Assembly: GCA_963281255.1 (NCBI GenBank)
Contig: OY725494.1
Span: 4,353,934-4,417,933 of the forward strand
Length of the DNA: 64,000 nucleotides
DNA from: Aphrocallistes beatrix
Lineage: Eukaryota > Porifera > Hexactinellida > Sceptrulophora > Aphrocallistidae
Reading direction: 5' to 3'
Below, in pieces: positions 4,134-42,246 of this stretch (positions within the stretch are counted from its first letter, which is position 1; every line of letters starts with the position of its first letter). A program made the position numbers and the translations under genes. Below the pieces are notes generated by a model. That model was not told the origin of the DNA, did no database searches, and saw only the letters and a program-made list of their open reading frames with translations.

Positions 4134-4152
4134 TGAACGAAAAAACAAATTT

Positions 4153-9245: not shown

Positions 9246-9252
9246 TATAAAG
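9246..9252 (+). promoter_or_regulatory. TATA box of gene F
   Basis: TATAAAG, 29 bases before the first ATG at 9281. It is unrelated in surrounding sequence to the flanks of the other copies. Confidence 0.5.
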
Positions 9253-9280
9253 ACTTTGGATCTTCTCATCTTCAATAAGT

Positions 9281-12169: not shown

Positions 12170-12206
12170 TATCGTGATAAATGAAGTAATAGCTTTTTTT
12201 CATCCA

Positions 12207-14290: not shown

Positions 14291-15220
14291 CTATAAAGTC
14301 GCTTCCTTGCTCAATCGCTCAGAATAGCTTTGTAGATGTGAATCTATCGAGCTAACTTTATCGGTCTCTACTACCTCTCCCATGATACCTCCTAGTGCTG
14401 ATTCGACCTGATTTTGCTCTACTTTCGTAGCTTTGGACAGTTCTGTCAAGTTTACTTCCAGTATTTCTCCCTCCAACTTCCAACATCTCGAACAGATTCC
14501 ACCTTGTACCAATTCCATACATATTCCAGGAAGAATTCTTGTGTCAAAGCATACATTCAAATCTGAGCTCTCAACGAAGTGTTCATTGCCAAATAGTTCC
14601 AAGTCACTAATATCCTGTTGTAGCGTTGGAGAAAATTTCTTGCGATTAGTTCCTTCCTTCACTTCTTCCGTCCGACTTCTCTTCAATGAAGAAGTATTCT
14701 TGAGTAAGACTGATTCTACAAAGTCGTTCTTCCTCTTGCTTAATCGTTTGGAGTACCTTTCCATATGTACTTGTATTGTGTCCTCATAAGGATAATCATC
14801 TCTGAACTTCTGTGTAGCAACTCCCCTGACACTTCCAAGAGATCCTTTCTCTCGTTTCTGTTTTGTTTCTGTAGCTTTGAACAGTTTTGGAATGTTTATT
14901 TCCTTCACACTTCCATGAAATGTCCCTGTATGATTACTACAGTCAAAACTCACAATCAACTCCTCTGAATCCTGAATAAACCATTCATTCTCGAATAGCT
15001 TCATTATGGAGCTTTTGTCATTCAATGAAATATTTGTATTTGAAAGTTTACACTCTATTTCGTCCCAATTGAATGATGGATGGTCGTTTTTGTATTTTCT
15101 CAGTTTAGTATTCCCATATTGGGAACCAGTGGTGCTATTATTGTTTGATTGCATTATCATGATAAATGAAATGATTTTGCAATAGAAATTTGTCTCTTCA
15201 TCCATTATATACTTGTACAA
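14291..15220 (-). CDS. Gene I: two-domain member of the local intronless family
   Basis: The open frame is 309 residues, but the first about 20 codons overlap the TATA box (TATATAATGG), so translation more likely begins at the paired Met codons near 15160 or 15154, just before Gln as in gene F. Domain 1 contains an extra Glu in QDSEELIVSF. Domain 2 ends in RLSKEATL as in C. The linker is shorter than in C, without the LCQYTEQTS segment. Pseudogene B appears to derive from this lineage because it shares the extra-Glu motif. Function unknown. Confidence 0.75.
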   Translation of the reverse strand: MYKYIMDEETNFYCKIISFIMIMQSNNNSTTGSQYGNTKLRKYKNDHPSFNWDEIECKLSNTNISLNDKSSIMKLFENEWFIQDSEELIVSFDCSNHTGTFHGSVKEINIPKLFKATETKQKREKGSLGSVRGVATQKFRDDYPYEDTIQVHMERYSKRLSKRKNDFVESVLLKNTSSLKRSRTEEVKEGTNRKKFSPTLQQDISDLELFGNEHFVESSDLNVCFDTRILPGICMELVQGGICSRCWKLEGEILEVNLTELSKATKVEQNQVESALGGIMGEVVETDKVSSIDSHLQSYSERLSKEATL

Positions 15221-15439
15221 GTATTTACTATTGTCCAGTAGAATAAGGGAACGAATGCCGTAATGGTTACTGCTGTTGGAACTAGTCTGATTTCTACTAG
15301 ATGGGTCCTGCGATAGAAATTATTCTCCGAATATTTTACCATTATTGATGTAAGTAGAAAGTGCTCGTAACAGCTCTTCTTGTGCCATTTCGCCATCCTA
15401 AGAGTGGTTCCTATAAGAATCTAATTCTACTACTACGTA

Positions 15440-15776: not shown

Positions 15777-16851
15777 CTTACATTTTTCGTTTTGATAAGT
15801 ATAATCCTTCAACTTCATGAAAAAGTGTATTTGTTTTTAATTTATTAATCATATTATTGTTAATTATGATGAACAACATTAATTTTGTCGATTACTCATA
15901 ATTTTAAGGAGTATCTGTTTGGGATCTTACGCATACTTGACAGTAGAGATATGATACTCTACTTGTAAATACCTCTGCTGTTCTACTCCTTTAAACTCAC
16001 CCACATCTATTCAAACCTTGTCTATACTAACTGCTTATAATATTCTATTCAGATATGTTGCATGACTCCAGCCAGACAAGTGGTGTCATTTGAGTTACCT
16101 TTCAGATGTAATTATTATATTTTCACAAAATATGTCAGATTTACATTCGTTATATGCCATTGAAACCCTGCGTTTACTCTTGAAAATTCGTTATATACAT
16201 GTACACGTATTATACATTTGAAATTTGCTTCATTGATATGTGTCTAGATCTACAGTACTAATAAATTCGTTATCCTCCAAAATTTCTCCTTGTTTAAATT
16301 GTTGTTGAGATTAATTGTCCCATGTTCATTTCACCCTTGACTGCACTCCTGATAGTTACACCGAGATACCTATGACAGGAATGCCAGTCAACTCGTACCA
16401 CATACCAACTCGTACTAATTCAACAGAAAATCCTGCTTTTCTCTGTGTTACAAATATCTCATCCAAAATACTATAAAATCGTACATTTCATTTTGGTAAT
16501 TGGTACGAGTTGATTGGTTCCACTATTACAGCGGTTTTAACATGAGGTACGTGCTATACCCCAGAAGATATATACCTGGGAATTGGGTTGGGTTTCAGGG
16601 TTGTCGTGAGAATGAAATTTCCATTCCCACAGGATTTCTGTGGGAATTCGCACAGATTCCCACATGTGGGAGTTCCCATAGCCTTAAAGTAATTCCCACT
16701 TCCATCCCATTATGGAAATCTGTGGGTTTTCCCATGGGAATTCCCACATATTCCCATTCCCACGGCAACCCTGGTTTTCTTTCAAGGTTTTCATATACTA
16801 CGTACCTCGTTATGTGTACAATTGTGCGTAGAGAAATTATTAGCGTAGATA
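15777..16851. other. Region before MTRR; holds a hAT-like MITE at 16596-16773
   Basis: The MITE has ends CAGGGTTGTCGTGAGAATG and the near-complement CATTCCCACGGCAACCCTG, and an interior of repeated TTCCCA motifs. An outer imperfect palindrome (CATGAGGTACGT near 16541 and ACGTACCTCGTTATG near 16800) surrounds it. The rest up to the ATG at 16852 shows no other gene; the MTRR promoter should be here, but I see no clear TATA box. Confidence 0.5.
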
Positions 16852-19800
16852 ATGGCATTGGATTCTCAGAGTCAATGCCCTCCAGTGCTCATCCTCTACG
16901 GATCTCAGAAGGGACAGGCACACGCGATCGCTGAAGAAGTGTTAGAGACTGCGAGGCAGGAATTCTCTCTGGAAGCAGACATCTCTTGTCTCTCTCAACC
17001 TGACATCATCGTGAGTAGAATAGATTATGCTATACAGTCGACTCCGCTTAATAGGGCCACTGTTTAATCGGGTCAACCGCTTAATCGGGCCACTTTTGGT
17101 AGGATCGGAATAGCTCTCACACATAGAAGCTAATACAAAATATTTTAATAGGGTTCTCCGCTTAATCGGGACAAAATGTCCTCTGACCGATGTATTAAGT
17201 GGAGTCGACTATATTTAAATCTGCCAATTTATACATCTCATTATGCGATGATTGCAAACTTGCCCATCCTTCATTTTGATAAAGGCTTTGACATACATGC
17301 CAACCTGAGCCATGATAAGCGGGACGCAGCGTTGAATTTCGCGGGACATGGCGGGACCCAATAGAAAAGTATTATACATAGAACATTGCCGGCGGAACTG
17401 GTCCGGCTTTGGCCGGACCAATTTTATGCCATTATGGCTTATTTTCATATGCAAATTTGCTTTTGGCCGGACCAACTTTCGCTATGGCCGGACCAATAAA
17501 AAGTTGCTTCCGCCGGGCCTGTAGAATACAAAAAAAGCGGGGAGATTTCATGTAAAAGCGGGACACTCGAGGAATTAGCTCAATAGAATGAAAAAGCGGG
17601 ACGTCCCTCCAAAAACTGACAATTGGCAAGTATGCTTTGACATTGAAACTCTACGTACTATTACAGTATTACTCCATTAACCATTCGAAGAGATGTCCGA
17701 GACAATGTTTATCATTTTACACATAAATCTACCTCGATTAGTGAGAATTCTAGATTTGTTGTGCTCAACTTAAGACAGAATCCTTAATTATCGCTACGAT
17801 TAGTCGAAGTTTTAGATATTTCCGTATCTATTTATAGGAATTTATAATCATTGAGTAATTTATGATCTTGTCCAGGAGAGATTACGGATTGGGGGATTTG
17901 TGGTATTTATAGTCTCCACGACTGGAGAGGGAGAGCCCCCAGACACCATGAGGAAGTTCTGGAGAAGTATAAAAAGGAAAGATCTCAGCTCAAACTACTT
18001 CTCTAACCTCAGATACGCTCTCTTAGGTAGATACGATAACTCTACGTTATAGTTACATGGCCGTAGGAAGCTGTGTGGCTTGTAAGGCCATGGAAACTGT
18101 ATTAGTTCTATGAGCGATAACGCGGATGAGCCTTAACACTTTTGATTACAAAATGGCAATGGCCTCGTCACTTTTTTTAAACTTCTGATTATATTCTGTT
18201 CTTTGTATTCAAAGTAACAGTGTATACGTATTACAGCTTCACATCATTATATTATCCATGGTCTTCTTAGAATTCTTAGATTACTGTTATATACAGTATG
18301 ATACAGACTGAAATTGCACCGAAGTAGAATAATTAATTAAGAATGATGAACGAAGTTAGTACGTTATTGATTGCTATGATTCAATCCTTGGTGACTGTAG
18401 ACCTGGGTATTATACAGCCTCCAGAGATACGCTACTTTTCTCAAACCCCTAAATTTGCATACGCCTAAATCGCTAAATAGCATCATAATATAGGGTAATT
18501 GGGGTATTATTCTGGATTTTTACGCTCCTAAACACTTTGAAGCTCATAATCATACGCCTAAAGGAGCGTCTCACGCTCCTAGGTAATCCCTCGCTGTAGA
18601 CAGAATACATTTAAACAATAAGAAACATAATTGAATATGTCCGTACTATGTTAAAAGGTTTCTGTATTGAGAATTAGAGACACTTATAGCTATCTTGAAT
18701 AGCCTGTACTTAACTGTATTATGTGAGAACAGGTCTTGGAGATTCTAACTACGCTAACTTCTGCGCGATGGGAAAGAACTTGAACCAGAGACTGCTGAGT
18801 TTAGGCGCGGAACCCTTCTATGAGGCGGGGTTTGCTGATGATGGAACCGGGTCAGTACAGTACAGCTTTATTCTATTTTTAGCTCAATAAGATTGACAGT
18901 GGCTTAGGTTAAGAATACGTATATCTGCTTGTGGTGATAATGAGTAGTGTTTCTTGAATAACTAACATATCAGTATTCCTATGTATGCATACTTGCCAAC
19001 CTCTGCAAGGAAAAAAGGAGATAAGTAGTATTTTAGCAGGACATACAGTAGAACTCGGATAAGACGTACCCCTTCTGGAAGGAATTATTAGTACGTACTA
19101 TCCGTAAGTACGTACTAACCGAGTTTGTACTACACAAAAATCTATATTATAGATGGATTTTGGTTCAGAGAAATTAGTACGTACTAGACCGAAGAACGTA
19201 TTATCCGAGTACTAACCGAGTTCTACTGTAGTATATTCGTATTAATCCTATACACTGGAAAGCGGGACAATTCTACTTTTTGGAACGTTTCGCGGGACAT
19301 TACTTTCAAAATATGTCCGAAAAGCGGGACTTCCAGCAAAGACAGGACAGTCAGAAGTGTGTATACGGATGGTATTCTGCGACCTTTTTTAGAAACGCCA
19401 TGAGTCATAATGGTATGGTGGAAATAGTTCGCACAAAAACCGGGAATAGTTCGACTTTCCAAAAAGGAAATACTTCACATGAAAACCACCATTAATCCTA
19501 ATGATAAAAAGTCGCTACTATTTCCTAAATCTGCAATTCGAACTATTTCCTTTTTCGAAAAGTCGAACCATTTCCGCATTACCGTCACAATAACACAAGT
19601 CACAAAACGTTTACATCTCAAACTTTATCTTTCTCATCTCACTTAGGTTGGAAGTTGTAGTGGATCCATGGGTTGATAACATCTGGCAAGCATTCAGAGT
19701 GTATACAAAGGTGAGTGGTCATTGCCACTACAATCACGTTACTAAATCACAAGCTATGCTAGTGCTGGGCTTCAATGCATGTGACGAGTTTATACTTATT

Positions 19801-22800
19801 AAATTTACACCAATTAATTCTATTTATTTTTTAAAAATATTTCCAGAACTAAGGGCTTCAAAGCATGAACCCCAAACCAATATGCATTAGAAGTTAAACG
19901 ACCACCAACATAGCATATATACATATATATACATATATGTGTTATTATGAGTTTACCTTACTCTGAATTACCTTCAATCGTACTCTGCGAAGTATATTAT
20001 CAATATTTCATACATGCCAACCTGAGCCATGATAAAAGCGGGACGCAATAGAAAAGTATTATACTTGTAATCCATAAAAGCGGGACATAATGGAGAAATT
20101 TCATGTATGGGACACTGGAAATTAGCTCAATAGAAGAGTCAAAAAATCGGGAACCGAGTATGATCTTTTCACTTTATACGTTGAAGTAGCATTACTATCC
20201 TTGGATTCAGTGTATACTTCTGAGGTGCATTCGTTTACCGTATTTTATCTAGGAAATGAATAAATTAAATACAAAACAGTTTCCTAACGAGTGCACGCCT
20301 CTTCTCCACGAAATGCTGCACAAATCCCTCTCCCCTTCCAAGCCTGAGACAAGATCCCCTTCCACAGCAAACAAGCTTGATAAAGTACTAGAGTTGCAAA
20401 GGCACAGCTCTTTGCCAGAGAAGGTAGGATCTACTTCTTCCATATCTTCCAATGAGAGTTCTAACGGATTCACTCCGATTGGTGAGACTACTACGAAATA
20501 TGTTTGTTTATCAAAAAACCTGAGCATTTTGTTTACAAAACAAATTGCAAATTCATTTCTGAAATACATTGAATTTACATCTGAGACATACCATATAATA
20601 TAATGATAACTTCAGTATATATTATAACGGATTCATTTATATTGTCATGTCACGACTGTTCGTTTTATCAATGTTTACTGTACATCACTCCAAGGTGTGA
20701 AACATTCACTCACTCCTACTCCTGCCAGGAAGCTCTCTCCATTCGATTATTCCACCAGCTCTCCCAGCAATTCTAACTCGTCTGCTACAGATAGTCTGGA
20801 CAAACTGTCCAGCAATGTTACCTCTAAACTTCTGATAGACAAACGAGTAAATTCAGGTGAGCTCTTCTATGTTTTCCTTGTCTCCAAAATTGCAATTAAT
20901 TCTGCGGTTTTCTAAATTTCTTTTGTGTTATTCACACTTTTAATAACTTTATTTTCATCAAAGCTTTGGAACTTTCTTTATCCATAAAGTGTAAATTGGA
21001 CTATTATATTAGAGCAGTATTCTCATACAAATGTTTTCCTGTATCACCTGTGCAGTCTTTTGTTCCATCACTATGTACAAGGAAGCTACTGTGTAGTAGG
21101 CTCACATTGTGCTGGTATTTATCTACGTTTGCAACGGAATAGTACAGTCTTATTGTATCTCTGTTAATTAAATGAATGATATACTCTGCTGCTACAAACG
21201 ATCGAACAAGATCAAGCCCATTCTATCTACAAGTGAGACTAGGATCCACATGCATAGAATTCACGAATATTATATATTATCACTAATTGCCATTCCTTCC
21301 CATTTCTCGAATTTTAGCATTTGGGTATATGACTTGATCAGTGGTATTCAAACTGGGGTAGGCTAGGCTTCTCATGGGGGTACACTGGCTCTCAACATAT
21401 TATTAATAATAGCAGGAGTTAACGTTGGGGGTACACAGAAAGTTCAAAATCAGTCTGGGGGGTACGATTGGAAAAGAGTTTGAAGACCACTGGTTTAGAT
21501 GTCACCAGCTGATTTTCCCGAATGTCCTTATCCGTAGTGATAAGTTCTGTAACAACATTTCGTGAGTCTACCCCCTACACAGCTGATTAGTTGGACGGTA
21601 GGGGTGGAAGGTTCACACATCCAATTGCATTGTGCATTCGGGATTATATAATTATATGTCTTCTCCACTAGATGAGGGTAGCAGCTTTCTCACTGCGTCG
21701 AACAGCAAGGTAGATGTGGAAATGCCTCTAATGTCTCAAAGCACTGTGTATGTTATTAGTTTATTTCATCTCTGAAGGCTAGGCTCATGTTTTTACTCGC
21801 CTTTACAGTTAGCTTAGAGGTTTTTGGGGTCATCATTACTCTGTTTTGAATATATGATTTCATAATTCATTTTTCAAATTCTTTATCTTGTATCTTAAAT
21901 CTCTGAATCTTATTCTAACACTCAATTGTTTTCCTAGTTACGCAAACACATTCCAACCGAATTTGCTTCCCCGAGACAGTAGCAGTAATTCCGTGACAGT
22001 GTCGAGTCCGACTCATTCGGAGGAGAAACTGAGTACTCCGTCTCACCAGCCGCACTACCTCGAATGCGAGATCCTAACTGTACGTTTTCTGACATTGATT
22101 TGAACGGAAAAACTCGAGTTATTACACAACCAAGTCTCAACTAATAATAGTATTACACTGAGGCTATTTTAAAACTTAATCGATAAATTGGGAACTCCGC
22201 GTAATCGAACTTTCCCAAATAGCGGAGTTGATTTGCCAATTTTGTGCTTACATTTCAAAATATTCTAAAAATTCGTTTTCTAACCTCACACTTGATACAC
22301 CCATCAAAACTCCTGTTTATTGATAATTTTGTGGTGCTGTATCATTGAAAATGCATATTTGTGACTGTTACTGTAGAATGCCCAGCATTTATATGGCTTC
22401 AGTTGCATAGAAAATGGCTGGGAGACATCCGCGATATCGGGGACACTGTCCCCTCTGGGCATTCTACGGTTAAAGCCTACAAACTCGCCATTCCTTTCGA
22501 TAGCATCCACGTATCCATATTTCTCATTATCTTATCAATTAAGAATCCTGTGAGAGTCTATTAATATAATGTTGTTTACTGTTAGACTACAGAATCCTGT
22601 CCGGAGTTTAGAACACAGCCTATTTTCCCTAACGATACGATCTCAATTTGTGACATACTCAGTTCTCGGCTTCTCACAGATACTCAGAGATTTTCTGATG
22701 TGAATAGGGTGATAGAGATGGAATTACTTATGAACGTAAGGATGAATTCAATATTTTCAGTTACTGCAACATTCTCTTACCATAGCAACCTATTCTCACC

Positions 22801-25800
22801 ATAGGAATTATATTTATAATTTCATGTTAGGATCCGTTCGGTTTCCAAGCAGGAGATGCAGTGGGTGTACTCTGTCCTAACGACGAGTTGGAAGTAAACT
22901 ATTTGCTCGAAAGGCTAGACCTCAGATCTGTAGCGGACTCTCTCCTCAAGATAACAATCTTACCCTTCACTTCCAAGAAAGGTGAGCTAATTTTAGAACA
23001 AAATGATACAGTATTAACTATGGATGTTTTGTACTATTTTGCTTGGAATGTACTTAGAGATTTCCTTGGATTTACAAAGTGTGTTACAGCTGACCATATG
23101 GGACAAAATCAACACATTTCTGTTACATTGTAGCATTACATAATTGTACTGCTAAATTATTTCTCAAAAAATTAACGTTGTATCCTACACATACAAACAA
23201 TTACTCGACTCCTGTTAATCATACATTAAGTCAGCGGTTTTCAACCTTTTTTGGCTGTGGGCCCCAATTTTTCTCTTTCTGTGGACCCTTCCTATTAACC
23301 GTAACACAAAATTTCGAATCCTGTAGACCCCCTGATATCTTCTGTGGGCCACTAAGGGGTCCATGGACCCCAGGTTGGGAACCACTGCATTAAGTTTTAT
23401 CGAAATCAATTTTAGTGGAGCAATGAAATATTTATTTATTTCACGCGTGTATTATGTAGGAGCCATTGTGCCAGCTTACGTTCCCACCAAATGCACAGTG
23501 AGAGAGTTGTTCCTCCACCACCTAGACATCAGATCTGTGCCTAGAAAGGTAGGTAACTAGTGCAGTGCAGATATAATATACTCTCATTCATTTCCATTTA
23601 AGATTTGTCATGGTAAAATGTAAAACTGATTCGATCATTATGTTTTAATATATAGCCTCATCATGCTATCATATTGAATTGTAACGTTACATCATGATGA
23701 TATCTTATACAGTCCATCAGCTATTTTATCATGTACATGATGTTGCATTATAACTAATTGATTTACAACTGTTTAGTCTCTGTTGTGGATGTTAGCTCAG
23801 TATACTTCGAATAGAGAAGAGAAATATCGACTCGCTAAGCTATCTAGCAAGCAAGGTAAGCACTTTATTAAATATACAGTAGAGTATCCCAAAACGGACT
23901 CCGAGAATCGGACATCTCTTCAACGGACAAATGCCATCTCCCCAATGTGTCCGTTATATATTCCACTGTATATTTCTACTTATTAGATAATGTCTCTATT
24001 TCATGCTAGCACTTTAAAATATCTCTGAGTTATATTCCATTCTGTTAGGTTCAGAGGAGTACACCACGTTGATCAGGGATCAGGAAGGTACTCTGATGGA
24101 CATCTTGCACTCATTCCCTTCTTGCAGCCCTCCTTTAGTCCGACTCATCGGTAAGCCAATGCTAGCCTACAGCCACAGAGTTAGCATTGTAATGACACAA
24201 TCTATTTATAGAGTTCCTACAACCACTCAATCCCAGATATTACTCTATATGCAAGTGAGTCTACGTAGTGTGTATCCATGGTTCATTCCATTTAAACTAT
24301 TATACATAGATGATGTGTAATGTAATGTGTATTCTCTGTAGCTCTCCTATCACTTCAGATAATCGTATCAAGATTGTATTCAGTGTTGTGGCACTAGAAT
24401 CCAGATCTTGGCATCCTTCTAAAAGGTACGTCACAGATCTCAACTTATTCTTTCCAGATTTAGTTTATTCAATTCTTCTTTTGACATAGGATTGGACTCT
24501 GTACTGGATGGATGGATGAACTCTCAACTAGATTTATGAACGAATCTATTAAACCAAAGGTAGGAATCATGATTAACTCAGTCATTAGAATGAACATTAG
24601 AGACTACTTGTTAGGAGGCGAAAAACTATTTTGTAATGGAGTTCCTACTTCTAATAAAACCAGGTTTATAGAGGTCTAGCGATTGCAAAACCGATGGATA
24701 AAAACCCGAATTTATTCCTAATTTCCTAATGAAACAGTTAAATTTTGAAGATTTATTTTAAATTCATCAATTCAAGTGAGTTCAGATGATGAAGAGATTT
24801 TTCATATACCCGCTGTTTATAGGAATAAATAAGTACTAATACACACAATTAATAATGTATAAACTCCTCAAGCTCCACCTCTCAATCATTTCCAGAATGT
24901 TCAACGGCTTCCATCTTCCAGAAGATCCCGCTACGCCTATTATAATGGTCGGACCAGGCACTGGAGTCGCACCATTCATTGGCTTCTTGGAACATAGGTG
25001 AGCTCCCTTGAAATCTAAAAATAGTTCCATACCTGCCAACTGTCCCGCTTTTCACTGTATAGGACTAATACGAATATATTTTGTCCTTAATCTCGTGTCC
25101 CGCTTTTTTCTTTGCAGAGGTTGGCATGTATGTAGTTCATTTAATTATAATCTGGTAAATATGCATAACTCTTGTGTAGAGAGCATTTACGAAAGCAAGG
25201 AAAGGAGTTGGGAGCCTCACTCCTATTTTTCGGCTGTAGACACGAGGAAGGAGACTTTATATTCAAGTAAGTTTCTAGGACAAGAGTGTAGATTCCAAAT
25301 GTTGTATTTTCGAATTTATATTGATAGAAATTGTTTTACAATATGGATACGATTTGATCTGTAACGATGTTTTCAAGTACAGTCGACTCCGCTTAATAGG
25401 GTCACTGTTTAATCGGGTCAACCGCTTAATTGGGTCACTTTTGGCAGGACCGGAATAGCTCTCACACATAGAAGCTAATACTCTGACCGATGTGACCCTA
25501 TTAAGCGGAGTCTACTGTATATTTATATTTTAAACATTTATATCCAAACTCTCTCAATTGCATTTATGTCTTTGTTCAATATTTTTAGAGAAGAACTAGA
25601 CAAATTCCAGGCGAACAAAATCCTAAGTAAGCTCTACCTCTCTTTCTCCCGGGACGATACGTCTCCTGCTCGCTACGTGCAAGACAACATGATGGTGTGT
25701 GGGGGTGAGCTGTTGAGGCTAGTGAGATATGAGAAAGCTGTGTTCTACCTGTGCGGGGATGCTAAGAACATGGCTCCTGACGTCAGACAGACTTGGCTCA

Positions 25801-26633
25801 ATATACTGCAGAAACATGGAGGTAACTTGGCTTAACAATCTCAACGTTAAATCCAACTGATAATTCCACAACCAACCATAGTAACAACTTGAATACTTTA
25901 TGTATCAAGTAGTGAACGACCGAAACCAGTATTTTACCGAAACCGAATTTCGGTATTTCGGCCACAATTTGCAAGACAATACATACTATTTTATATTTAA
26001 TCAAGGTGCATAAACATAACTAATCACTAATTCATTAAGTATGTAGATATATTGTGTAACTAGATTCTAATAAATGAAATTAACTTTGGGTAGGTTTTCT
26101 CTACAAAATAATATTTTTTCCGCATTTGCTGGGAGTAATCTGTTCATTACTCAGAAATTCTGAGTCAGAATTTAATCATGATTTCGGTGAAGTCACCGAT
26201 ACCGAAATTCGGCCGAAACCGAAACCGAAATTTCGGTCGTTCACTAGTATCAAGCCATCATGTCCCTTTGAAATGAGATTCTTGCTTAGAATTTTTAAAA
26301 CAATTTAATTATTTATTTATTTATTTTGTCTTCTAATCAAATTCGAAAATGGAATGTTTTGTCTGTGTTAAATTTTGTCTCGTTTTCACATGAAATTTCC
26401 CCATTACTATGTCCCTATTTTTTAAATTCCATGTATAATTATTACTTTGCTAATGTCCCGCGAAAAATTCAACGCTGCGTCCCGCTTTAATGACTCCCGA
26501 CGCTTATTCAGGGAAATACGGTATATGCTTATTCAAAATTATTTCTTAATTAGAAATGGACAAAGAAGAAGCGACTCTCTATATAAAGGACCTGCAAAAA
26601 GAAAAGAGATACCTTCAAGATATATGGTTATAA
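16852..26633 (+). CDS. MTRR: Methionine synthase reductase, complete 20-exon gene
   Basis: It reactivates cobalamin-dependent methionine synthase by passing electrons from NADPH through FAD and FMN. Exons: 16852-17010, 17876-18026, 18733-18850, 19647-19710, 20253-20481, 20695-20856, 21672-21747, 21938-22079, 22586-22735, 22831-22981, 23460-23548, 23777-23855, 24049-24150, 24212-24254, 24342-24425, 24490-24559, 24873-24997, 25180-25266, 25589-25821, 26554-26633. All phases close (2394 nt, 797 residues). Seen: FMN loop [37 protein letters not shown]; linker about 165-370, Ser-rich; FAD motifs [18 protein letters not shown] and GLCTGW; NADPH motifs [37 protein letters not shown]-terminal RYLQDIW with the aromatic shield Trp. 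Human MTRR is about 700 residues; the excess is in the linker. Exon 17 uses an unusual AAG acceptor, chosen because it alone keeps phase and homology. Confidence 0.93.
17035..17210. mobile_element. Pogo/Tigger-like MITE in MTRR intron 1
   Basis: CAGTCGACTCCGCTTAATAG at the left end and its complement at the right end, with TA flanks. Same family as 312-483. Confidence 0.7.
17293..17633. mobile_element. hAT-like element in MTRR intron 1
   Basis: Ends ATACATGCCAAC and TTGGCAAGTAT, flanked by a perfect 8-bp duplication GCTTTGAC (17285-17292 and 17634-17641). The interior has repeated AAGCGGGAC motifs. No transposase. Confidence 0.75.
19046..19228. mobile_element. Pogo-like MITE in MTRR intron 3
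   Basis: Ends CAGTAGAACTCGGATAA and its near-complement, flanked by TA. Related to 47606-47773. Confidence 0.7.
21339..21492. mobile_element. hAT-like MITE in MTRR intron 6
   Basis: Ends CAGTGGTATTCAAACTGG and GTTTGAAGACCACTG. The flanking 8-mers GACTTGAT and GTTTAGAT agree at only five positions, so the duplication has decayed or the boundary is off. Confidence 0.5.
23232..23387. mobile_element. hAT MITE in MTRR intron 10
   Basis: Ends CAGCGGTTTTCAACCT and GGTTGGGAACCACTG, with a perfect 8-bp duplication CATTAAGT on both sides (23224-23231 and 23388-23395). CAG-GGTT-TCAA ends are typical of hAT MITEs. Confidence 0.85.
23877..23968. mobile_element. Short pogo-like MITE in MTRR intron 12
   Basis: CAGTAGAGTATCCC...ATTCCACTG with TA on both sides. 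The interior (CTCCGAGAATCGGACATCTC) recurs at 49270-49345. Confidence 0.6.
25029..25131. mobile_element. hAT-like MITE in MTRR intron 17
   Basis: Ends ATACCTGCCAAC and GTTGGCATGTAT; same family as 17293-17633. Flanking duplication is partial (TAGTTC). Confidence 0.6.
25380..25517. mobile_element. Pogo/Tigger-like MITE in MTRR intron 18
   Basis: CAGTCGACTCCGCTTAATAG... and its near-complement, TA flanks. Shorter than the copy at 312. Confidence 0.75.
25910..26246. mobile_element. hAT-like MITE in the last MTRR intron
   Basis: Ends TAGTGAACGACCGAAA and TTTCGGTCGTTCACTA, flanked by a perfect 8-bp duplication GTATCAAG (25902-25909 and 26247-26254). Confidence 0.8.
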
Positions 26634-28205: not shown

Positions 28206-28503
28206 CAGTCGACTCCGCTAAATAGGGTTACATCGGTCAGAGGACATTTTGCCCTGATTAAGCGGAGAACCCTATTAAAACCCGCGCACGCCCAGGAATG
28301 TTGAAGTGAAAGTGAAAGTTAATTGAAAGTAAACTGAAAATGAAATTGAAAGCTGGGTCATTTCTATTTATACCTTTGACCCCAAGTATCCGAAAATATA
28401 TTGTATTAGCTTCTATGTGTGAGAGCTGTTCCGGTCCTGCCAAAAGTGGCCTGATTAAGCGGTTGACCCGATTAAACAGTGACCCTATTAAGCGGAGTCG
28501 ACT
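28206..28503. mobile_element. Pogo/Tigger-like MITE carrying a nested insertion
   Basis: Outer ends CAGTCGACTCCGC... and ...GCGGAGTCGACT as at 312. It is interrupted at 28279-28388 by a piece of the piggyBac-like MITE also found at 46941. Confidence 0.75.
28279..28388. mobile_element. Nested piggyBac-like MITE, right end lost
   Basis: It matches 46941-47057 (CCCGCGCACG..., AGGAATGTTGAA, AAAGCTGGGTCATTTCTATT). It sits at the TTAA of the host MITE. The right end, including the CTCGGG terminus, is missing. Confidence 0.65.
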
Positions 28504-29720: not shown

Positions 29721-32700
29721 ATGAACTCCCTTGTTACCTACAATCATTTTAGAGTTACTTATGATGCCAATAGCGTGCATTCCTTAGGGAAAGAATCATC
29801 TCCATGCTCAGTTATAGCAGACATTTCGAATTTGCATCAAAATAGATTCAGTATGGAGTTGGAACGCATCAAAAAGCTTGAAGATATTGTATTGGCTCTG
29901 CAGAGGGAAAATACTCTTCCTAAACAGAAAGACTTCGACTCAGATATCCTCACTCGATTGGGAAACCTCGAGGCTTCTGTCATTCAAGAAAAGGCACAGA
30001 AAGGGGAACTCAAGAAGAAATTGAAGTTTGCGAATAACCAGAATAGCCGACTACTTCTTAGACTCAAGAAAGAAAAGGTGAGAACATTCTTGTGAGATGA
30101 ATTTGTATCCATCTACGTAAATTGCCTATCAACAAAATCGTAACTCGATTTCTTGAAATCATTTCCTAAACTCAAATGACAAATGAGGGAATCGAGTGAA
30201 GAGATTTTTTTAGTTTTTCGCTGCTTCCTCTAACCTTGAGTAAATTGAGAAAAGGGATTTTATTTTGGCATTTAGCACACATCGTCGTTCTTTTTACTCT
30301 TTTTGAGCCGATTTCGCAAATGCCTAGGTTCCTCATTATGTTCAGTTATTATTAGGTTACATACACTGCCATAGCACAGCCTTCAAATGGTACGGCAATT
30401 AGTGTCCATAAAGGTGGGACGGCCACTCTATACCAAATAATACTGGACAAAAAGTGTGGCAATAGTTCTAACTCCACTGGTTAGTGTATAATGTCTCTCT
30501 TCCCGTTAAATTCAACAATTATGATTACTTCGGTTGGCAAGCTTCTTTTCGAAAATTTGAATTTCACTTTTAAAAATTTTAACTAAAAGGAGGGTTGCGC
30601 AGATCGCTGGAGTGGTTTCTTTTCCAGGTTTTGATCCAGGTTCTTACACAGGTAGGGCGTACGTTTTACCAAATAAACTTAAAAGAAGTAGCGATCTGCT
30701 AGGCCTCCTTATTCGCTTTACAATCCAACCATATTATATACTACAGTCATAAGTTATTCTTTTCTCATGGGTCAATATTAATGGAATTTATCGGTTTACT
30801 TTTTGATATTATATCTCGTCAAAAAGGAGGATTGCATCGATCGTTTTATTTACTTTCCGGGAATTGAACCCGGTTTTTACAATCTACAGTCGTATGTTCT
30901 ACCAAATAAACCAAAAGTCAAGAAGTAACGATCAATCTAGCCTCCTTATTCTCTTTACAATCCAACCATATTATATACTACAGTCATAATTTATTCTTTC
31001 CTCATGGGTCAATATTAATGGAATTTATCAGTTAGTTTACTTTTTGATTTTATATCTCGTCAAAAAGGAGGATTGCATCGATCGTTTTATTTACTTTCCG
31101 GGAATTGAACCCGGTTTTTACAATCTTCAGTCGTATGTTTTCCCAAATAAACCAAAAGTCAAGAAGTAACGATCAATCTAGCCTCCTTATTCTCTTTACT
31201 ATCGAACCGCATTATATACACCAGCCATAATTAAAACTTTTCTCATGGGTCAATATTAATATGAACTTTATCTAATCAGTTTACTGGATAAGACTTTTAG
31301 ATTTGTTATAACATCAAAAAGGAGGATTGCATCGATCGCTGTATTTACTTTCCGGGAATTGAACCCGGTTTTTACAAGCCAAATATGTATGTTATACCAA
31401 ATAAACCAAAAGTCAAGAAGTAGCGATCAATCTAGCCTCCTTATTCTCTTTATTATCCAACCACATTATATGCACGAGCCATCATTTATGCTTTTTCTCA
31501 TGGGTCAGCATTAATGAAAGTAATCAGTTTACTGGAGAAGACAGATTTTATATCTCATCAAAAAGGAGGATTGCATCGATCGTTCTATTTACTTTCCGGG
31601 AATTGAACCCGGTTTTACAAGCCACAGTCGTACGTTCAAATAAACCAAAAGTCAAGAAGTAGCGATCAATCTAGCCTCCTTATTTCTTTATTATCCAACC
31701 ACATTATATGCACCAGCTATAATTAAAACTTTTCTCATGGGTCAATATTAATGAAAGGAATCAGTTTCCTGGAAAGACTTAGATTTTATTTCACATCAAA
31801 AAGGAGGATTGCACCGATCGCTCTCTGTACTTTCCGGGATTTGAACCCGGTTTTTACAATTCAAAGTTGTATGTTATAACCAAATAAACTAAAAGTTCGC
31901 GAAGCAACGACCCATCTAGCCTCCTTGCGTTTCTCTCTTTCCCAGGTATAAATATATTCTTGATAAATTCAATGGATTGCTTAAGGGTTTGAATTAAGTT
32001 ATCAAATTACCTCACTCTCATGTAAATTAATTAGTAACTCATTCCCTTAATCTTTCTAATCTAACCTTACATTTCTGTGTATAATAATGTTCTCATTTCT
32101 AATTTGTCTGTCAATTTGTTAATTGAATTTGCAAGCCATTATTAGGTGGGATAACTATAATATCAATTTAATTAAATTTGAATGATATTATGGCTGAATA
32201 AAAATCGTTGTAGATAATGTAGATTGTATAGTTTTGCTGATAACACAAACAATGAGATAAATTATTAGAAAATTGTCTAATGGTTCTCTCATAATTTTAG
32301 ATTTCATTAGGAGATAGTTGTTACTAAGTAAAACACTGAAGATAAATGCATAACTAAACATATATATCACACAATTCCGTATCAGTGGCATACCAAGATG
32401 TATTATAGCCATGTAAGATAAACAAGAAATGTACGATTATGTTTCAACAAGGCTGGATTCGGTTAACTGGTTAACCGGCTAACCGCCGCCAATCTCGGCT
32501 AACGGTTAAGGAAATCCTCGATCGGTTAACCGATCGGCTTTATTTTCTAAATATTTACACTAATTTCTTTGTTTTTCTACGGAGATTCATGAATATTACT
32601 AAAAATTTGATAATACAGTATATTTCCTATTTTATAATCATATAATATATTTCGAGACCACTGAAATTTATAAAATTTTTGATACTAGGTTAAAGGTTAG

Positions 32701-35700: not shown

Positions 35701-38089
35701 ATGGAACAGTTCCCTACCAGACCACCAAGGGAGCAGAGGGAGAACACTCCTGAGAGTTCTGCTCCCTCCACTCCCTGCCAGCCCGAGAACTCTCTCAAAT
35801 CTGTTCCCAGATCAGCTCCTTCATCTCTATCTGGGGACACAAGATCCAACCAATCACGTTACCTCCCTCAACCCCCAGCTAATAAGCAGGGAAGAGCTAC
35901 AACTCCGAAACTTATGTTGGTACGTGTCTTATATAAAAAAATGCAATGGTTTTTTTGTTTGTGCAGAATTGATTGAGGAACTGGGAGATGCTAGAAATGT
36001 GAAATTTGGCACACAGGTAAATAATAATGAGTCTACGATTAAGTTCGAAGATCTCAGCGAAATCTTCACACCTCGCCGAGATCAAAAACAACATCTCCCA
36101 ATAGCACACATCTACCGTAACATTTGTATTAGAATGATTCCACTGAAGTACATTCCTCTCCTACCGTCCCATCTCCATCCTATGAGTCCGCTACTCTCCC
36201 CAAGAGTGTCCAGTTTTTCAAAAAGTCCGTTCAGAGCCAGAAACAGTCAGACATGCTTCCTTCCAAACTCGTAATCAAGAGCAAAACCTCCAGCAAAACA
36301 CCCGATTCAGCTAGCAGACTCCTCACCTCTGTATTCAGGTAGTAGACTCCTCTCCTCTGTATTCAGGTATTAGACTCCTCACCTCTGTATTCAGGTATTA
36401 GACTCCTCACCTCTGTATTCAGGTATTAGACTCCTCACCTCTGTATTCAGGTAGTAGACTCCTCACCTCTGTATTCAGGTAGTAGACTCCTCTCCTCTGT
36501 ATTCAGGTAGTAGACTCCTCACCTCTGTATTCAGGTAGTAGACTCCTCTCCTCTGTATTCAGGTAGTAGACTCCTCTCCTCTGTATTCAGGTAGTAGACT
36601 CCTCTCCTCTGTATTCAGGTAGTAGACTCCTCACCTCTGTATTCAGGTAGCAGACTCCTCACCTCTGTATTCAGGTAGTAGACTCCTCACCTCTGTATTC
36701 AGGTAGTAGCCTCCTCACCTCTGTATTCAGGTAGTAGCGCTGTACTAGAGTCGAGCACATCCTATATTGCACTTGTTAATAGAGCTCCTAGTATAGCTAG
36801 TATAGGAGATGTCTTGTGTCATGATCGATGTCGAACGTACGTAGATACTCCTCGCTCCTGCGAACGAAATATTTGATGCATTGGTTGAATTTTTAATGCA
36901 ATGTTTTGGAATGGCTACTAGCTGCTTACTCTTCAAAAAGTTTTGTCTTTATCTTCTAGATCCAAACGAGATTCAACTCCCATCAATGGAGTAAATAATG
37001 AAATATCTCCACTGCCCCAATCTCTGGAGATGACGTCATCAGCACATGTAGGGAGAGGTGCAGAGGTTCATAGGACGAGATCTGACAGCCAACCAGACCC
37101 CTCCACTCCAGGAGCTAAGTCTCTAGACCTAATCAGAGATAACCAATCAGTAACTCCAACTTCTAGCACGAACTGCGAGTACATCGCTAGCGATGGAGCC
37201 AGTGTGGATAGCATGGGGAAGAGAGCTCTATCGATGTCGACACTGGCTTCTGGATTGGGATTCAAAGGGAAACAGAAAGAGAAGATTGTGAAGAAGAAAG
37301 TTAAGTCAGCTGAAGAGCAAGTGAAAGTGAGCGGAAACAACAAAGTTCATAAGCGATTCTCTTCCCTCAATTCTCTCCCAAACGCGTTTAAGCGCTCTCC
37401 CAAGTTGGAAGAGAGAGACAAGAAGAGGAAGGAAATACCTGGAATTCCTGACTCCAGTAAAAAGGTAATTAAACCTATCTATGTTACAGTTAAAACGTCA
37501 ACAATTAATAAGCACCTTGATACACTTGTTCTCTACATTATGGTTGTGGCAAGTGGCACAAGGTGACACAGGTGCTAGTAAAATTTAGAAAAGATAATCT
37601 ATGGGAAGCTCTTAAACTGAACTAGATTTTCAGTAGCTGTGGTTTGAATGAATTATCTTCCAAGGATAGTTTCATTTTAGTATTTTTCTGATGCAAATCA
37701 TTATAGTGCTCAAATGCTTTTGGCAGGCAAGTGAAATTCCAGCCATTTTCCATCCGTTATATATGTACATAATTCCCATACGTTATTATGCATAATTTAT
37801 GGACATTCTTTTGTTGTTCTAGGAGAAGCGTAAAGGTCGATTTAGTGATGACGCACTCGAAATAGAATTCAAGCACATTTCAGACATAATTACTCCGATC
37901 CAGGACAGTAAAACAGGGCGAACATCCGACAAATTCAGACTCTCTCTAGCCTCTCTTCCCATTTCTGAGCGATCAGAGACTTCCTCCCCCACAGAAGAAT
38001 TCCATTCCTTGGTCCGGAGTAAGAAATTGGGAGACATCAACACCCTAGCTAACCTCTCTACTCAATCTTCTCCTCCCTGGAATTCGTGA
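29721..38089 (+). CDS. Coiled-coil, Ser/Pro-rich protein, 11 exons, function unknown
   Basis: Exons by GT-AG sites and phase: 29721-30077, 32851-33084, 33443-33598, 34290-34352, 35032-35111, 35209-35271, 35341-35403, 35694-35919, 36133-36338, 36960-37464, 37823-38089. The sum is 2220 nt, giving 739 residues plus stop, and every phase matches. Residues about 45-120 form a helical, Leu/Lys/Glu-rich coiled coil. A Ser/Asp-rich linker follows. About 235-345 form a second coiled coil spread over five exons, four of them short (63-80 nt). The remainder is Ser/Pro/Lys-rich and likely disordered, with basic runs such as KEKIVKKKVKSAEEQ. There is no membrane segment. The 5' start is uncertain: exon 1 could begin at an acceptor near 29749, and Met before ELERIKKLEDI is another candidate. 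I do not recognise the family; a cytoskeletal or scaffold role would be a guess. Confidence 0.75.
30587..30710 (-). ncRNA. tRNA-like Pol III unit 1 (diverged)
   Basis: Minus-strand unit with outer ends AAGGAGG/CCTCCTT and a 10-bp inner clamp AGCGATCTGC/GCAGATCGCT that is perfect here and differs in sequence from the other units. The acceptor-like stem TTCTTTT/AAAAGAA is seven of seven. The D-like stem GTTT/AAAC is perfect. The anticodon-like loop CCTACCT lacks the usual U33. Terminator is T4. A conserved TATA-like block lies about 25-30 bases upstream. Confidence 0.6.
30824..30947 (-). ncRNA. tRNA-like Pol III unit 2 (Tyr-type GTA loop)
   Basis: The core at 30849-30920 folds as a cloverleaf. 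Acceptor TGACTTT/AAAGTAA pairs six of seven; D stem GTTT/GAAC; anticodon stem TACGA/TTGTA with loop CTGTAGA (triplet GTA); T stem CCGGG/CCCGG with loop TTCAATT. The A-box is TGGTTTATTTGG and the B-box is GGGTTCAATTCCC. The core is clamped by an outer stem that ends in AAGGAGG/CCTCCTT, followed directly by TTTTT. A TATATAAT block sits about 25-30 bases upstream. An ordinary tRNA has no such clamp, and the acceptor carries a mismatch. Confidence 0.7.
31065..31188 (-). ncRNA. tRNA-like Pol III unit 3 (GAA triplet)
   Basis: Same layout as unit 2. The loop is CTGAAGA, so the triplet is GAA, with stems unchanged. Outer clamp and T5 terminator kept; TATATAATG upstream. Confidence 0.7.
31319..31442 (-). 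ncRNA. tRNA-like Pol III unit 4 (TTG triplet)
   Basis: The anticodon-like arm is TACAT/TTGTA with loop ATTTGGC (triplet TTG); one closing pair is lost. A and B boxes, outer clamp and T5 are kept. ATATAATG upstream. Confidence 0.65.
31563..31681 (-). ncRNA. tRNA-like Pol III unit 5 (GTG triplet)
   Basis: The loop is CTGTGGC (triplet GTG) with stem TACGA/TTGTA intact. The D loop has lost about five bases (TTTGAAC), so the A box is damaged. B box, clamp and T5 are kept. Confidence 0.6.
31801..31926 (-). ncRNA. tRNA-like Pol III unit 6 (TTG triplet)
   Basis: The anticodon-like stem TACAA/TTGTA is perfect, with loop CTTTGAA. The acceptor GAACTTT/AAAGTAC has G-C at the first pair where other units have T-A, a compensatory change. 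The T-loop is TTCAAAT. Clamp and T5 are kept; the TATA block is weaker. Confidence 0.6.
32448..32803. mobile_element. hAT-like MITE in the same intron
   Basis: Ends CAAGGCTGGATTCGGTTAAC and GTTAACCAACCCCAGCCCTG. Flanks share GTTTCAA. The interior has repeated CGGTTAACC motifs. Confidence 0.6.
35927..36110 (+). mobile_element. 5' fragment of a Helitron-like element
   Basis: TCTTATATA start, then GAATTGATTGAGGAACTGGG and GTGAAATTTGGCACACAGG, also present in 47376-47597 and 57690-58748. It lies in intron 8 of the coiled-coil gene. Confidence 0.5.
36311..36738 (+). repeat. 28-bp minisatellite spanning an exon-intron junction
   Basis: Fifteen units of 28 bp in exact register (the GTATTCAGG motif begins at 36331 and every 28 bases to 36723). 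The consensus is GTAGTAGACTCCTCACCTCT followed by GTATTCAG. Exon 9 ends at 36338 inside the first unit. Each unit contains a pyrimidine-rich stretch, then CAG followed by GTAGTA, so every unit looks like a 3' splice site fused to a 5' splice site. Confidence 0.9.
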
Positions 38090-41266: not shown

Positions 41267-42246
41267 CTACGATCTTCTTTTCTGATTCTTTGGCTTTGCA
41301 GATTCCCATTTAGAGCCATTCTTTCTCTTACAATTTCTCTTTTGGTATTTTAATCTGTCATGTTTTATTTCTTCAATGTTTTCGTCGGTTAAGTTCAAGG
41401 CTCTTTCACAAAGTGTGTCGAATTGTTTCTTATCTTCCTTTCTGAGTTCATCATAGAATCTATGATTTATGGAAAAAGTGCCTTGATTGTAACCAGCATA
41501 TGAGTAATATTTTCGTAATTTCTCAAATTGATTCTGATCTTTAATGCTCACATTTATCTCCTGAACATTAATGTTTTTCTGTTGATTGCAAGGATCGTAA
41601 TTCTCTTGCAAAGTTGGCATTGCAGTTTGTTCCTGGAATGGTGTATACAAATTCCTTGCATTGATTGGCTGGAAATATCCACTCTCGATTGGAATGTTGT
41701 TCTCTTGGTGGTAAATTGAATTTGATTGGTTCGTAAATGCATTAGGGGTCACGTTGTTATACAATGCGGGGCAATCTGGACAATTCGTTGCATACATTTG
41801 TTGGTTATTTGGATTCTCCCAATCGTTACGCCTCCTCTTTCTTGAAGTGTTAATCTCATAATCAGATACTACGTTAGATGCATTATGTGGACGTTTCTGT
41901 TGATTTATTTTTCCCATTCCTGGCATCTGATTGGGCTGCATAGGAGTATAATGAGTTGGAGCATATTCCGCCTGAAAGCTGTTAATTGGGAAAGAACTGT
42001 AAAGTTGGTTTGGTAAAGCAGCGCAGTTAGTAGAATACGGTTCCCCATAATTCCCCAGAAATTCCGTGCTTGTTGTTCGATATGGAGGGTTTGGTTGTGA
42101 GTTGTATTTTGGTGGGAAAGGCTCCTCTCGAATGGATTGTTGTAGTCACAGGAAGGATATTCAGTCGTCCATCCTGAATTCTCATAGTTCGAAAGAAAGG
42201 GGTTTTGTAGGTATGAAATGTAATTTTGATCGTTAAAATGAGACAT
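41267..42246 (-). CDS. Q1: Asn/Gln/Tyr-rich protein with family-like C-terminal domain, one frameshift
   Basis: The first frame (from 42246) opens with MSHFNDQNYISYLQNP and is plausible to the NNPFE motif. The second frame, which overlaps as an open frame and continues to 41267, carries on with Pro/Tyr/Asn-rich sequence and ends in a basic tail. A single missing base near 42125 (the GAGAGGAGCC stretch) would join them into about 326 residues. The C-terminal part has SIKDQNQFEKL, GTFSIN, CERALNL and a basic CKRKNGSK stretch, in the same order as the QDSEL, GT-HG, ALG and SKRKND motifs of the 1-16 kb family. A TATA box lies about 55 bases upstream. It may be a pseudogene, or the missing base may be a sequencing error. 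Confidence 0.6.

What the first reader, a model, noticed from the sequence alone, without database searches (positions are those of the whole stretch)
30587..31926. Tandem array of tRNA-like RNA polymerase III units with a clamping outer stem and changing anticodon triplets
Six minus-strand units (119-126 bp, spacing 237-254 bp) each show, in order: a TATA-like block about 25-30 bases upstream, an A box, a cloverleaf core, a B box (GGGTTCAATTCCC type), a second half of an outer stem, and T4-T5. The triplets are TAC, GTA, GAA, TTG, GTG, TTG from unit 1 to 6, while the anticodon stem stays paired. Stem changes are compensatory: the acceptor is TTCTTTT/AAAAGAA in unit 1 and TGACTTT/AAAGTAA in unit 2; unit 6 has G-C for T-A at the first pair; the inner clamp differs between unit 1 and the rest but pairs in both. 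Known tRNAs have no such clamp. Vault and Y RNAs share the end-paired, Pol III, U-terminated plan. The array is antisense in intron 1 of a coiled-coil gene.
Basis: partly seen in the sequence, partly recalled or inferred. Interest (0 to 1): 0.87.

Follow-up and report, generated by a model that had tools for sequence, protein, structure and literature searches.

The report
Clamped tRNA-shaped RNA genes, tandem array
Six neighbouring genes in an animal-like genome appear to make a small RNA in which a transfer-RNA shape is held inside a double-stranded handle formed by the RNA's own two ends, which looks like a new kind of tRNA look-alike rather than a set of working tRNAs.

Summary
The array is real. 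Six minus-strand units (30587-31926, 119-126 nt) each have a TATA-like block, a tRNA-like cloverleaf, a two-part end-pairing stem and a T4-T5 terminator. ARAGORN calls the cloverleaf in 5 of 6. I add an upstream element (ACCC[AT]T[GA]AG at about -62) in 6 of 6 units and nowhere else in the window; with the TATA block this gives the geometry of a type-3 (U6/7SK/Y-like) Pol III promoter. Outer stem and cloverleaf are supported by covariation: between units 1 and 2, with nine changes on each side of the helices, seven pairs change on both sides and still pair. A covariance model built without unit 1 finds it at 89 bits (52 by sequence alone). The anticodon loop is the fastest-changing part (5 of 7 columns vs 7 of 112 in units 2-5), and two units have damaged internal promoter boxes. 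I read this as a Pol III noncoding RNA carrying a clamped tRNA mimic, built like bacterial YrlA (end-paired stem plus tRNA-like module), not a set of tRNAs and not a Y or vault RNA by the features tested. There is no expression evidence, the organism is unknown, and no relative was found outside the window.

The parts
31801..31926 (-). Unit 6 RNA body, 126 nt; anticodon loop CTTTGAA (triplet TTG); best tRNA score (Rfam 59.4 bits); own diverged promoter
31563..31681 (-). Unit 5 RNA body, 119 nt; triplet GTG; D loop has lost the GG and neighbours
31319..31442 (-). Unit 4 RNA body, 124 nt; triplet TTG
31065..31188 (-). Unit 3 RNA body, 124 nt; triplet GAA
30824..30947 (-). Unit 2 RNA body, 124 nt; triplet GTA
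30587..30710 (-). Unit 1 RNA body, 124 nt; diverged paralogue, 68-70% identical to the others; triplet TAC; B box degenerate; not called as tRNA, but clamp and acceptor stem fully paired
31974..32000 (-). Upstream (PSE-like) block of unit 6, -74 to -48, core ACCCTTAAG at -62
31729..31755 (-). Upstream (PSE-like) block of unit 5, core ACCCATGAG at -61
31490..31516 (-). Upstream (PSE-like) block of unit 4, core ACCCATGAG at -63
31236..31262 (-). Upstream (PSE-like) block of unit 3, core ACCCATGAG at -62
30995..31021 (-). Upstream (PSE-like) block of unit 2, core ACCCATGAG at -62
30758..30784 (-). Upstream (PSE-like) block of unit 1, core ACCCATGAG at -62
31948..31957 (-). TATA-like block of unit 6 (TATATTTATA region)
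31703..31712 (-). TATA-like block of unit 5 (CATATAAT region)
31464..31473 (-). TATA-like block of unit 4 (CATATAAT region)
31210..31219 (-). TATA-like block of unit 3 (TATATAAT)
30969..30978 (-). TATA-like block of unit 2 (TATATAAT)
30732..30741 (-). TATA-like block of unit 1 (TATATAAT)
30585..30588 (-). T4 terminator of unit 1 (units 2-6 have T5 at the same place relative to CCTCC)

Best explanation
Six tandem genes for one small noncoding RNA of about 125-130 nt made by RNA polymerase III. Shown from sequence: an upstream element and a TATA block at fixed distances from AAGGAGG; a U run after CCUCC; two ends that can pair into a handle (7 bp, a 4 x 5 nt internal loop, 10 bp); and inside it a tRNA cloverleaf, with covariation in both. 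Inferred: transcription starts at or near AAGGAGG and is by Pol III; the handle defines the molecule; its invariant outer helix and GCAAY loop strand are a protein-binding site; by tying up leader and trailer the handle keeps RNase P and tRNase Z from turning the transcript into a tRNA; and the enclosed tRNA fold is a mimic that docks a tRNA-binding protein or modifying enzyme. Because it does not decode, the anticodon loop is free to change, or is pushed to change, from copy to copy. This is how bacterial YrlA is built and works (end-paired stem tethers one protein, tRNA-like module the other). Inferred history: units 2-5 are recent tandem copies; units 1 and 6 keep two older versions that were already clamped.
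For: Covariation in clamp and cloverleaf. Held-out unit 1 found at 89.2 bits with structure vs 52 bits without, a gain of 37 bits against 15-26 bits for the five training rows (the two models differ in sequence weighting, so the comparison is approximate). Promoter geometry in 6 of 6 units, the core motif found only there in the window. RNA bodies of units 2-5 change less than the spacers: 12 of 119 vs 32 of 110 columns, P 0.0004. Anticodon loop 5 of 7 variable vs 7 of 112 in the rest, P 8e-5. Unit 1 keeps clamp and acceptor by compensation although its B box is degenerate, and unit 5 keeps 16 of 17 clamp pairs although its D loop is truncated, so the clamp outlives decoding features. YrlA anatomy and role: PMC8394870 passages.
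Against: No transcript evidence. No relative outside this window (those collections hold viruses, phages and prokaryotes, not animal genomes). U33 and a purine at 37 are kept in units 2-6, as in decoding tRNAs. Energy folding does not favour the D arm in any unit nor the anticodon arm in units 2-6. With unit 6 added the RNA-versus-spacer contrast weakens (24 of 119 vs 36 of 109, P 0.03), and the unit 6/unit 5 pair alone shows none (body 100 of 119, spacer 101 of 116). The number of further pair types does not exceed shuffles (84 of 500), and units 6 and 2 alone show one compensated pair (P 0.11). The compensation is mostly on the branch between unit 1 and the rest, so it counts few events. The PSE reading rests on position and a loose resemblance; no snRNA gene of the same genome was available to compare. 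Nothing shows which proteins bind.
Confidence: 0.55

Rival explanations
1. A cluster of working tRNA genes (Tyr, Phe, Gln, His, Gln, perhaps Val) whose leader and trailer happen to pair; the clamp only helps folding or regulates RNase P cleavage, and mature tRNAs are released.
For: ARAGORN of 6; Rfam tRNA above gathering score in 5 of 6, 36-59 bits; T-loop motif, U33 and purine 37 in units 2-6, D-loop GG in 5 of 6.
Against: Five bodies that are 84-98% identical would have to serve four amino acids. The second acceptor pair is mismatched in 5 of 6. Unit 5 lacks the D-loop GG and unit 1 has T54A and C33. A PSE/TATA geometry is not usual for tRNA genes other than tRNA-Sec (established knowledge; PMC3499247 passages show a SNAPc-occupied Pol III gene tRNAU1), and no TCA anticodon is present.
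Confidence: 0.15
2. A decaying tRNA-derived repeat (SINE or tRNA-bearing TRIM such as Helenus) that expanded in tandem.
For: tRNA-like promoters occur in such elements (PMC10886601: abstract, opening part and section 3.5); tandem duplication is evident; two units are damaged.
Against: No dispersed copy in the window. External promoter block with conserved spacing. Compensatory changes in inner clamp, acceptor and anticodon stems. RNA bodies of units 2-5 more conserved than spacers. The paper says that predicted structures of Helenus and Ajax do not support tRNA or 5S function, though a few Helenus families could encode a tRNA. I did not test for target-site duplications, primer-binding site or polypurine tract.
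Confidence: 0.1
3. A precursor of small regulatory RNAs: the 17-bp end stem with a U overhang is exported and cut by Dicer, as reported for VA RNA stems and tRNA-linked viral miRNAs (recalled), and the tRNA core is only an internal promoter.
For: Stem length and the 3' U overhang fit; that this suits export and Dicer is recalled.
Against: The 4 x 5 internal loop interrupts the stem. The outer strands are invariant while inner pairs covary, which fits a structure better than a fixed guide strand. Acceptor and anticodon-stem pairs covary too, so the core is not only a promoter.
Confidence: 0.07
4. A divergent eukaryotic Y RNA in the strict sense, bound by Ro60.
For: Y RNAs have type-3 Pol III promoters (PMC10498592 passages), paired ends and a short U tail (PMC4450293 passages).
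Against: No Y RNA family among the 18 Rfam matches listed at E up to 10. No single bulged C in the lower stem and no GUG-CAC motif at the inner helix; the upper-stem motif is not decisive, since C. elegans CeY RNA lacks similarity there too. That animal Y RNAs do not hold a cloverleaf is established knowledge, recalled.
Confidence: 0.06

Closest known systems
Bacterial Y RNA-like RNA YrlA
   Same: Modular RNA of 90-150 nt; large stem made by the two ends; tRNA-like domain similar to D, T and acceptor arms (PMC8394870 passages)
   Different: YrlA is bacterial and mimics part of a tRNA; here the sequence is eukaryotic, the cloverleaf is complete with an anticodon arm, the genes look like Pol III genes, and no Ro-binding motif was recognised
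Eukaryotic Y RNA / nematode sbRNA
   Same: Type-3 Pol III promoter, paired ends, 3' U tail (passages)
   Different: Lower stem lacks a single bulged C; no GUG-CAC motif; a cloverleaf instead of a loop domain
Vault RNA / nc886
   Same: Short Pol III RNA; promoter with internal plus upstream elements; triple gene repeat in humans (PMC10498592 passages); paired ends (recalled)
   Different: Not among the Rfam matches. That vault RNAs hold no complete cloverleaf is recalled
Dictyostelid Class I RNA
   Same: End-joining stem with compensatory changes; promoter element DUSE (CCC in some groups) about 60 nt upstream; many gene copies; starts AAG in most species (PMC7919456 passages)
   Different: About 60 nt, 6-bp stem plus an 11-nt motif and a variable rest, no tRNA core described in the passages seen
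Pre-tRNA
   Same: Cloverleaf core with leader and U-ended trailer
   Different: 17-bp leader/trailer clamp with covariation in its inner part; anticodon loop is the least conserved part; likely external promoter
Helenus (tRNA-bearing TRIM) and tRNA-derived SINEs
   Same: tRNA-like Pol III promoter inside a repeated unit
   Different: Array is local to one place in the window, with covarying structure and an upstream promoter block

Membership tests
tRNA | Cloverleaf with D-loop GG and T-loop motif | tested here: met
   Called in 5 of 6 by ARAGORN and by Rfam; but unit 5 lacks the D-loop GG and unit 1 has a changed T loop and is not called
tRNA | Anticodon conserved for an isotype among close copies | tested here: not met
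   Triplets TAC, GTA, GAA, TTG, GTG, TTG; loop 5 of 7 columns variable in units 2-5 vs 7 of 112 elsewhere
tRNA | Mature, CCA-tailed, charged product | not testable with these tools
   needs RNA data
Y RNA / sbRNA | Lower stem with one bulged C and GUG-CAC upper-stem motif | tested here: not met
   Helices read directly against PMC4450293 passages; no Y family among 18 Rfam matches at E up to 10. CeY RNA also lacks the upper-stem motif
Y RNA / sbRNA | Ro60 binding | not testable with these tools
   needs protein pull-down
Vault RNA | Rfam vault RNA profile | tested here: not met
   Not among 18 matches at E up to 10; that Rfam holds the family is recalled
YrlA | Stem of paired ends plus tRNA-like module | tested here: met
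   anatomy
YrlA | Sequence/structure profile of the family | tested here: not met
   No bacterial Y family among 18 Rfam matches at E up to 10; that Rfam holds one is recalled
Pol III type-3 gene | PSE and TATA box upstream at fixed places, T-run terminator | tested here: inconclusive
   Element at -61 to -63, TATA at -27 to -30 and T4-T5 in 6 of 6; no snRNA promoter of the same genome to compare
SINE / TRIM (Helenus) | Dispersed copies in the genome | tested here: inconclusive
   None in 64 kb; whole genome not held
SINE / TRIM (Helenus) | TSD, PBS, PPT or 3' tail | not tested
   no dedicated search made
Dictyostelid Class I RNA | About 60 nt with conserved 11-nt motif next to the 5' stem | tested here: not met
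   Units are 119-126 nt; length and plan; the 11-nt motif itself was not searched for

The most novel reading that the evidence does not exclude
A eukaryotic family of clamped tRNA mimics whose anticodon loop is under diversifying selection: one scaffold, driven from an external promoter and protected from tRNA processing, presents a different seven-base loop in each copy. The loops would serve as decoys or addresses, for example for anticodon-recognising enzymes or nucleases or for pairing to targets.
Probability: 0.15. Interest if true: 0.88.

Novelty: new variant of a known kind. Interest (0 to 1): 0.62.

Why it matters
Joining an end stem to a tRNA-like module is known from bacterial Y RNA, where it ties a ring protein to an RNase. 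A complete cloverleaf inside a clamp, made by Pol III in a eukaryote, would show that the same plan exists, or arose again, outside bacteria. It would also mean that some genes annotated as odd tRNA clusters by tRNA finders are a different RNA altogether, and it makes a concrete prediction (one 125-130 nt RNA, no mature tRNA) that a northern blot or existing total-RNA data could settle.

Tried and rejected
Own-genome search: none held. Phage collection, distant mode, E up to 0.1: no match. Exact patterns in viral contigs: 0 in four scans. Pattern in prokaryote genome contigs: 2 stretches; in the 221 and 231 bases read around them there is no 5' half of the unit, and about 2 chance matches are what I expect from the pattern's information content (own estimate, no call); rejected. 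Covariance-model hits at 54.3 and 56.4 kb (up to 25.8 bits, nominal E down to 0.00016): they hit both strands, and the sequence shows inverted-repeat foldbacks; rejected as relatives, and a warning that hairpins alone reach such scores. With filters off 47 rows were returned: the six units at 89-154 bits, the rest at 25.8 bits or less, six of them the units' own antisense strands at 8.3-25.7 bits. Rfam matches other than tRNA (13 of 18 rows) are below gathering scores, several on the other strand; rejected. An alternative pairing of the handle (GAUU with AAUC) looked possible in units 2-5 by eye, but unit 1 cannot form it and supports the 10-bp inner helix instead. Resemblance of the inner helix GAUC/GAUC to the 7SK HEXIM site (recalled) was noted and not pursued; unit 6 does not keep it. 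Literature: 10 search calls used and one that failed. No title or abstract start listed there describes a clamped eukaryotic tRNA-like RNA; some lists were cut (20 of 92, 20 of 40, 20 of 31, 12 of 24), and the library lacks most subscription papers, so this does not show that none is in print.
Full report
WHAT IS THERE. Six direct copies on the minus strand, starts 31926, 31681, 31442, 31188, 30947, 30710 and ends 31801, 31563, 31319, 31065, 30824, 30587. Tandem Repeats Finder gives one 241-bp family of 5.1 copies. BLAST of the array against the window returns the array itself plus short matches with E of 0.077 or more. ARAGORN calls units 2-6 as tRNA-Tyr, Phe, Gln, His, Gln and not unit 1. 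Rfam finds tRNA in units 2-6 at 53.4, 51.3, 43.2, 35.9 and 59.4 bits (gathering 29) when given the short stretch, and in four of them (not unit 5) when given the whole window. No other family reaches its gathering score in either search.

ANATOMY. Each unit reads: AAGGAGG; a 4-nt loop strand (CUAG, in unit 1 CCUA); 10 nt of inner clamp; a short linker; a 7-nt acceptor strand; a tRNA body with D, anticodon and T arms; the second acceptor strand; a linker; 10 nt of inner clamp; GCAAU (unit 1 GCAAC); CCUCCUU, which runs into the U run. In the hand alignment 217 of 228 helix cells form standard pairs. The outer 7 pairs never vary, so they say nothing for or against pairing by covariation. Of the rest, 4 of 10 inner clamp pairs, 3 of 7 acceptor pairs and 1 of 5 anticodon-stem pairs change on both sides; none of the 4 D or 5 T pairs does. 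The 11 failing cells: acceptor pair 2 in 5 of 6 units; D pair 4 in units 4 and 6; one T pair in unit 1; one anticodon pair in unit 4; one inner-clamp pair each in units 5 and 6.

IS IT MORE THAN CHANCE. Between units 1 and 2 there are 9 changes on each side of the helices and 7 pairs keep pairing after a change on both sides; a simple null that scatters the 3' changes gives a mean of 0.8 and never 7 in 20,000. For units 1 and 6 it is 5 (P 0.0002); for units 6 and 2 only 1 (P 0.11). On an unguided MAFFT alignment, where the acceptor of unit 1 is misplaced and its compensation therefore lost, 5 of 36 pairs change on both sides and 97.2% of cells pair; 1 of 500 shuffles reaches each of these values and 1 of 500 the covariation score, but 84 of 500 reach the number of further pair types; sliding the partner by 1-3 columns gives 38-53% paired. 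A covariance model from units 2-6 finds unit 1, which it had not seen, at 89.2 bits against 52 bits for the sequence-only model; the training rows gain 15-26 bits. The clamp duplex is stronger than shuffled flanks in units 1-5 (0, 0, 0, 1 and 1 of 2000 shuffles as strong) and less clearly in unit 6 (62 of 2000). Single-sequence folding is weaker evidence: z-scores -1.5 to -3.2, clamp pair probabilities 0.79-0.99, but acceptor 0.12-0.72, D arm 0.03-0.43, anticodon arm 0.06-0.39 except 0.91 in unit 1, and T arm 0.74-0.99 except 0.10 in unit 1.

PROMOTER. Counted from the first A of AAGGAGG, the string ACCC[AT]T[GA]AG starts at -61 to -63 in 6 of 6 units and occurs nowhere else on either strand of the window; a TATA-like block starts at -27 to -30 in 6 of 6. 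The motif was read off these promoters, so its absence elsewhere is not an independent test. The stronger point is unit 6, whose upstream region is otherwise poorly alike (with unit 2: 10 of 26 far upstream, 7 of 16 between the blocks, 5 of 10 at the TATA block, 7 of 21 from there to the start), yet the block -74 to -48 keeps 14 of 27 with units 1 and 2 and 15 with unit 3, with TTAAT and ACCC-T-AG-AA in the same places; with units 4 and 5, whose elements sit one base off, the ungapped count is only 11 and 8. 592 of 127,946 window positions (the six promoters among them) match that block of unit 2 as well, so the match alone is modest and its position is what counts. A PSE bound by SNAPc plus a TATA box marks Pol III type-3 promoters (PMC6004067 and PMC3499247, passages). 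Dictyostelid DUSE, about 60 nt upstream and with CCC in some groups, is a similar element (PMC7919456, passages). Likeness to human 7SK/U6 elements is from memory and is only a lead.

HISTORY OF THE ARRAY. The spacer-plus-promoter in front of unit 1 and that in front of unit 2 are 108 of 113 identical, but the RNA bodies of units 1 and 2 are only 82 of 120 identical. At the other end, the promoter of unit 6 is diverged (43 of 100 bases like unit 2, adding the segments) while its body is 84-86% like units 2-5. The simple reading (inference) is that two older genes, both already clamped, stood side by side, and that the segment between them was duplicated with the junction near the shared AAGGAGG. 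Units 1 and 6 are then two comparatively independent samples, and they agree on clamp, cloverleaf, promoter geometry and terminator.

WHAT CHANGES AND WHAT DOES NOT. Among units 2-5, ungapped columns vary in 12 of 119 positions of the RNA against 32 of 110 of the spacers that follow them, promoters included (P 0.0004): the RNA looks constrained. With unit 6 added it is 24 of 119 against 36 of 109 (P 0.03), and for units 6 and 5 alone body and spacer are equally alike (100 of 119, 101 of 116). Inside the RNA the anticodon loop is the exception: in units 2-5, 5 of 7 variable against 7 of 112 in the rest (P 8e-5), 2 of 36 other unpaired columns (P 0.0004) and the spacer (P 0.03); with unit 6, 6 of 7 against 18 of 112 (P 0.0002), 7 of 36 (P 0.002) and the spacer (P 0.009). 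In the first version of the test, which counted gap columns as variable, the contrast was weaker: 6 of 7 against 29 of 123 (P 0.0015) and against 18 of 47 other unpaired columns (P 0.04). U33 and a purine at 37 are nevertheless kept in units 2-6. Unit 5 has lost the D-loop GG and unit 1 has two B-box mismatches, which would matter if these were tRNAs or depended on internal promoters alone.

HOW IT PROBABLY WORKS. The molecule has two parts, each with compensated pairs: a handle made of the ends, and a tRNA fold. Bacterial YrlA has the same plan: a large stem of 5' and 3' ends that holds the Ro-like protein and a tRNA-like domain that binds PNPase and is modified by tRNA enzymes (PMC8394870, passages of a review; two further YrlA papers were not held). 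I propose the same division of labour here. That leader/3'-end pairing hinders RNase P is known for the bacterial enzyme and for short pairing (PMC9433436, abstract and passages); for this RNA it is inference. The protein partners are unknown.

SETTING. Minus-strand genes inside what is probably the first intron of a plus-strand coiled-coil gene: the exon of 29.7-30.08 kb ends in AAAAGGTGAGA, a plausible donor, with only weak, sub-threshold Pfam similarity to CortBP2; the next exon was not established. Upstream on the plus strand lies a methionine synthase reductase-like gene (best solved relative 2qtl, E 1.6e-13; further exon-like reading frames from 16.8 kb). The window looks eukaryotic from these split genes, with 35% G+C; an animal is likely, a sponge is unproven. 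No whole genome was held, and the collections I scanned hold viruses, phages and prokaryotes, so the lack of relatives says little.

VERDICT. Real, ordered and conserved in structure; not matched by any Rfam family beyond the tRNA core; not a Y, vault or Class I RNA by tested features; tRNA status unlikely but open. I call it a new variant of a known kind (Pol III end-paired RNA / tRNA mimic).

Noticed in passing
window 54200-54520 and 56240-56560: Two similar-looking foldback (inverted-repeat) elements, near reading frames of a repeated family; they gave false covariance-model hits on both strands.
   Followed up: partly
window 55046-55396 and 58081-58655: Tandem arrays with 139- and 141-bp units whose consensus sequences look, by eye, like reverse complements of each other.
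   Followed up: no
window 36305-36737: 28-bp minisatellite, 15.5 copies, 96% matches, between longer plus-strand reading frames.
   Followed up: no
window 425-474, 17044-17090, 25389-25439, 28445-28495: A similar 16-17 bp motif (GTGACCC..ATTAAGCGG type) in short tandem runs at several places and in both orientations.
   Followed up: no
window 1304-2044, 4114-5067, 6814-7428, 9251-10015, 11339-12199, 14291-15319: Reading frames of a multi-copy family that share a stretch like NEIE...MKLFE..WFIQDSE; one member scanned (4114-5064) gave only a sub-threshold Pfam DUF7380 match.
   Followed up: partly
window 41267-42145, 51948-52820, 54664-54993, 56750-57175 (minus strand): Glutamine-rich reading frames, some with a similar lysine-rich stretch; of the two scanned, 41270-42145 gave only a sub-threshold DctP match and 51951-52820 none in Pfam.
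   Followed up: partly
window 16849-25835: Methionine synthase reductase-like gene on the plus strand, in separate reading frames.
   Followed up: partly
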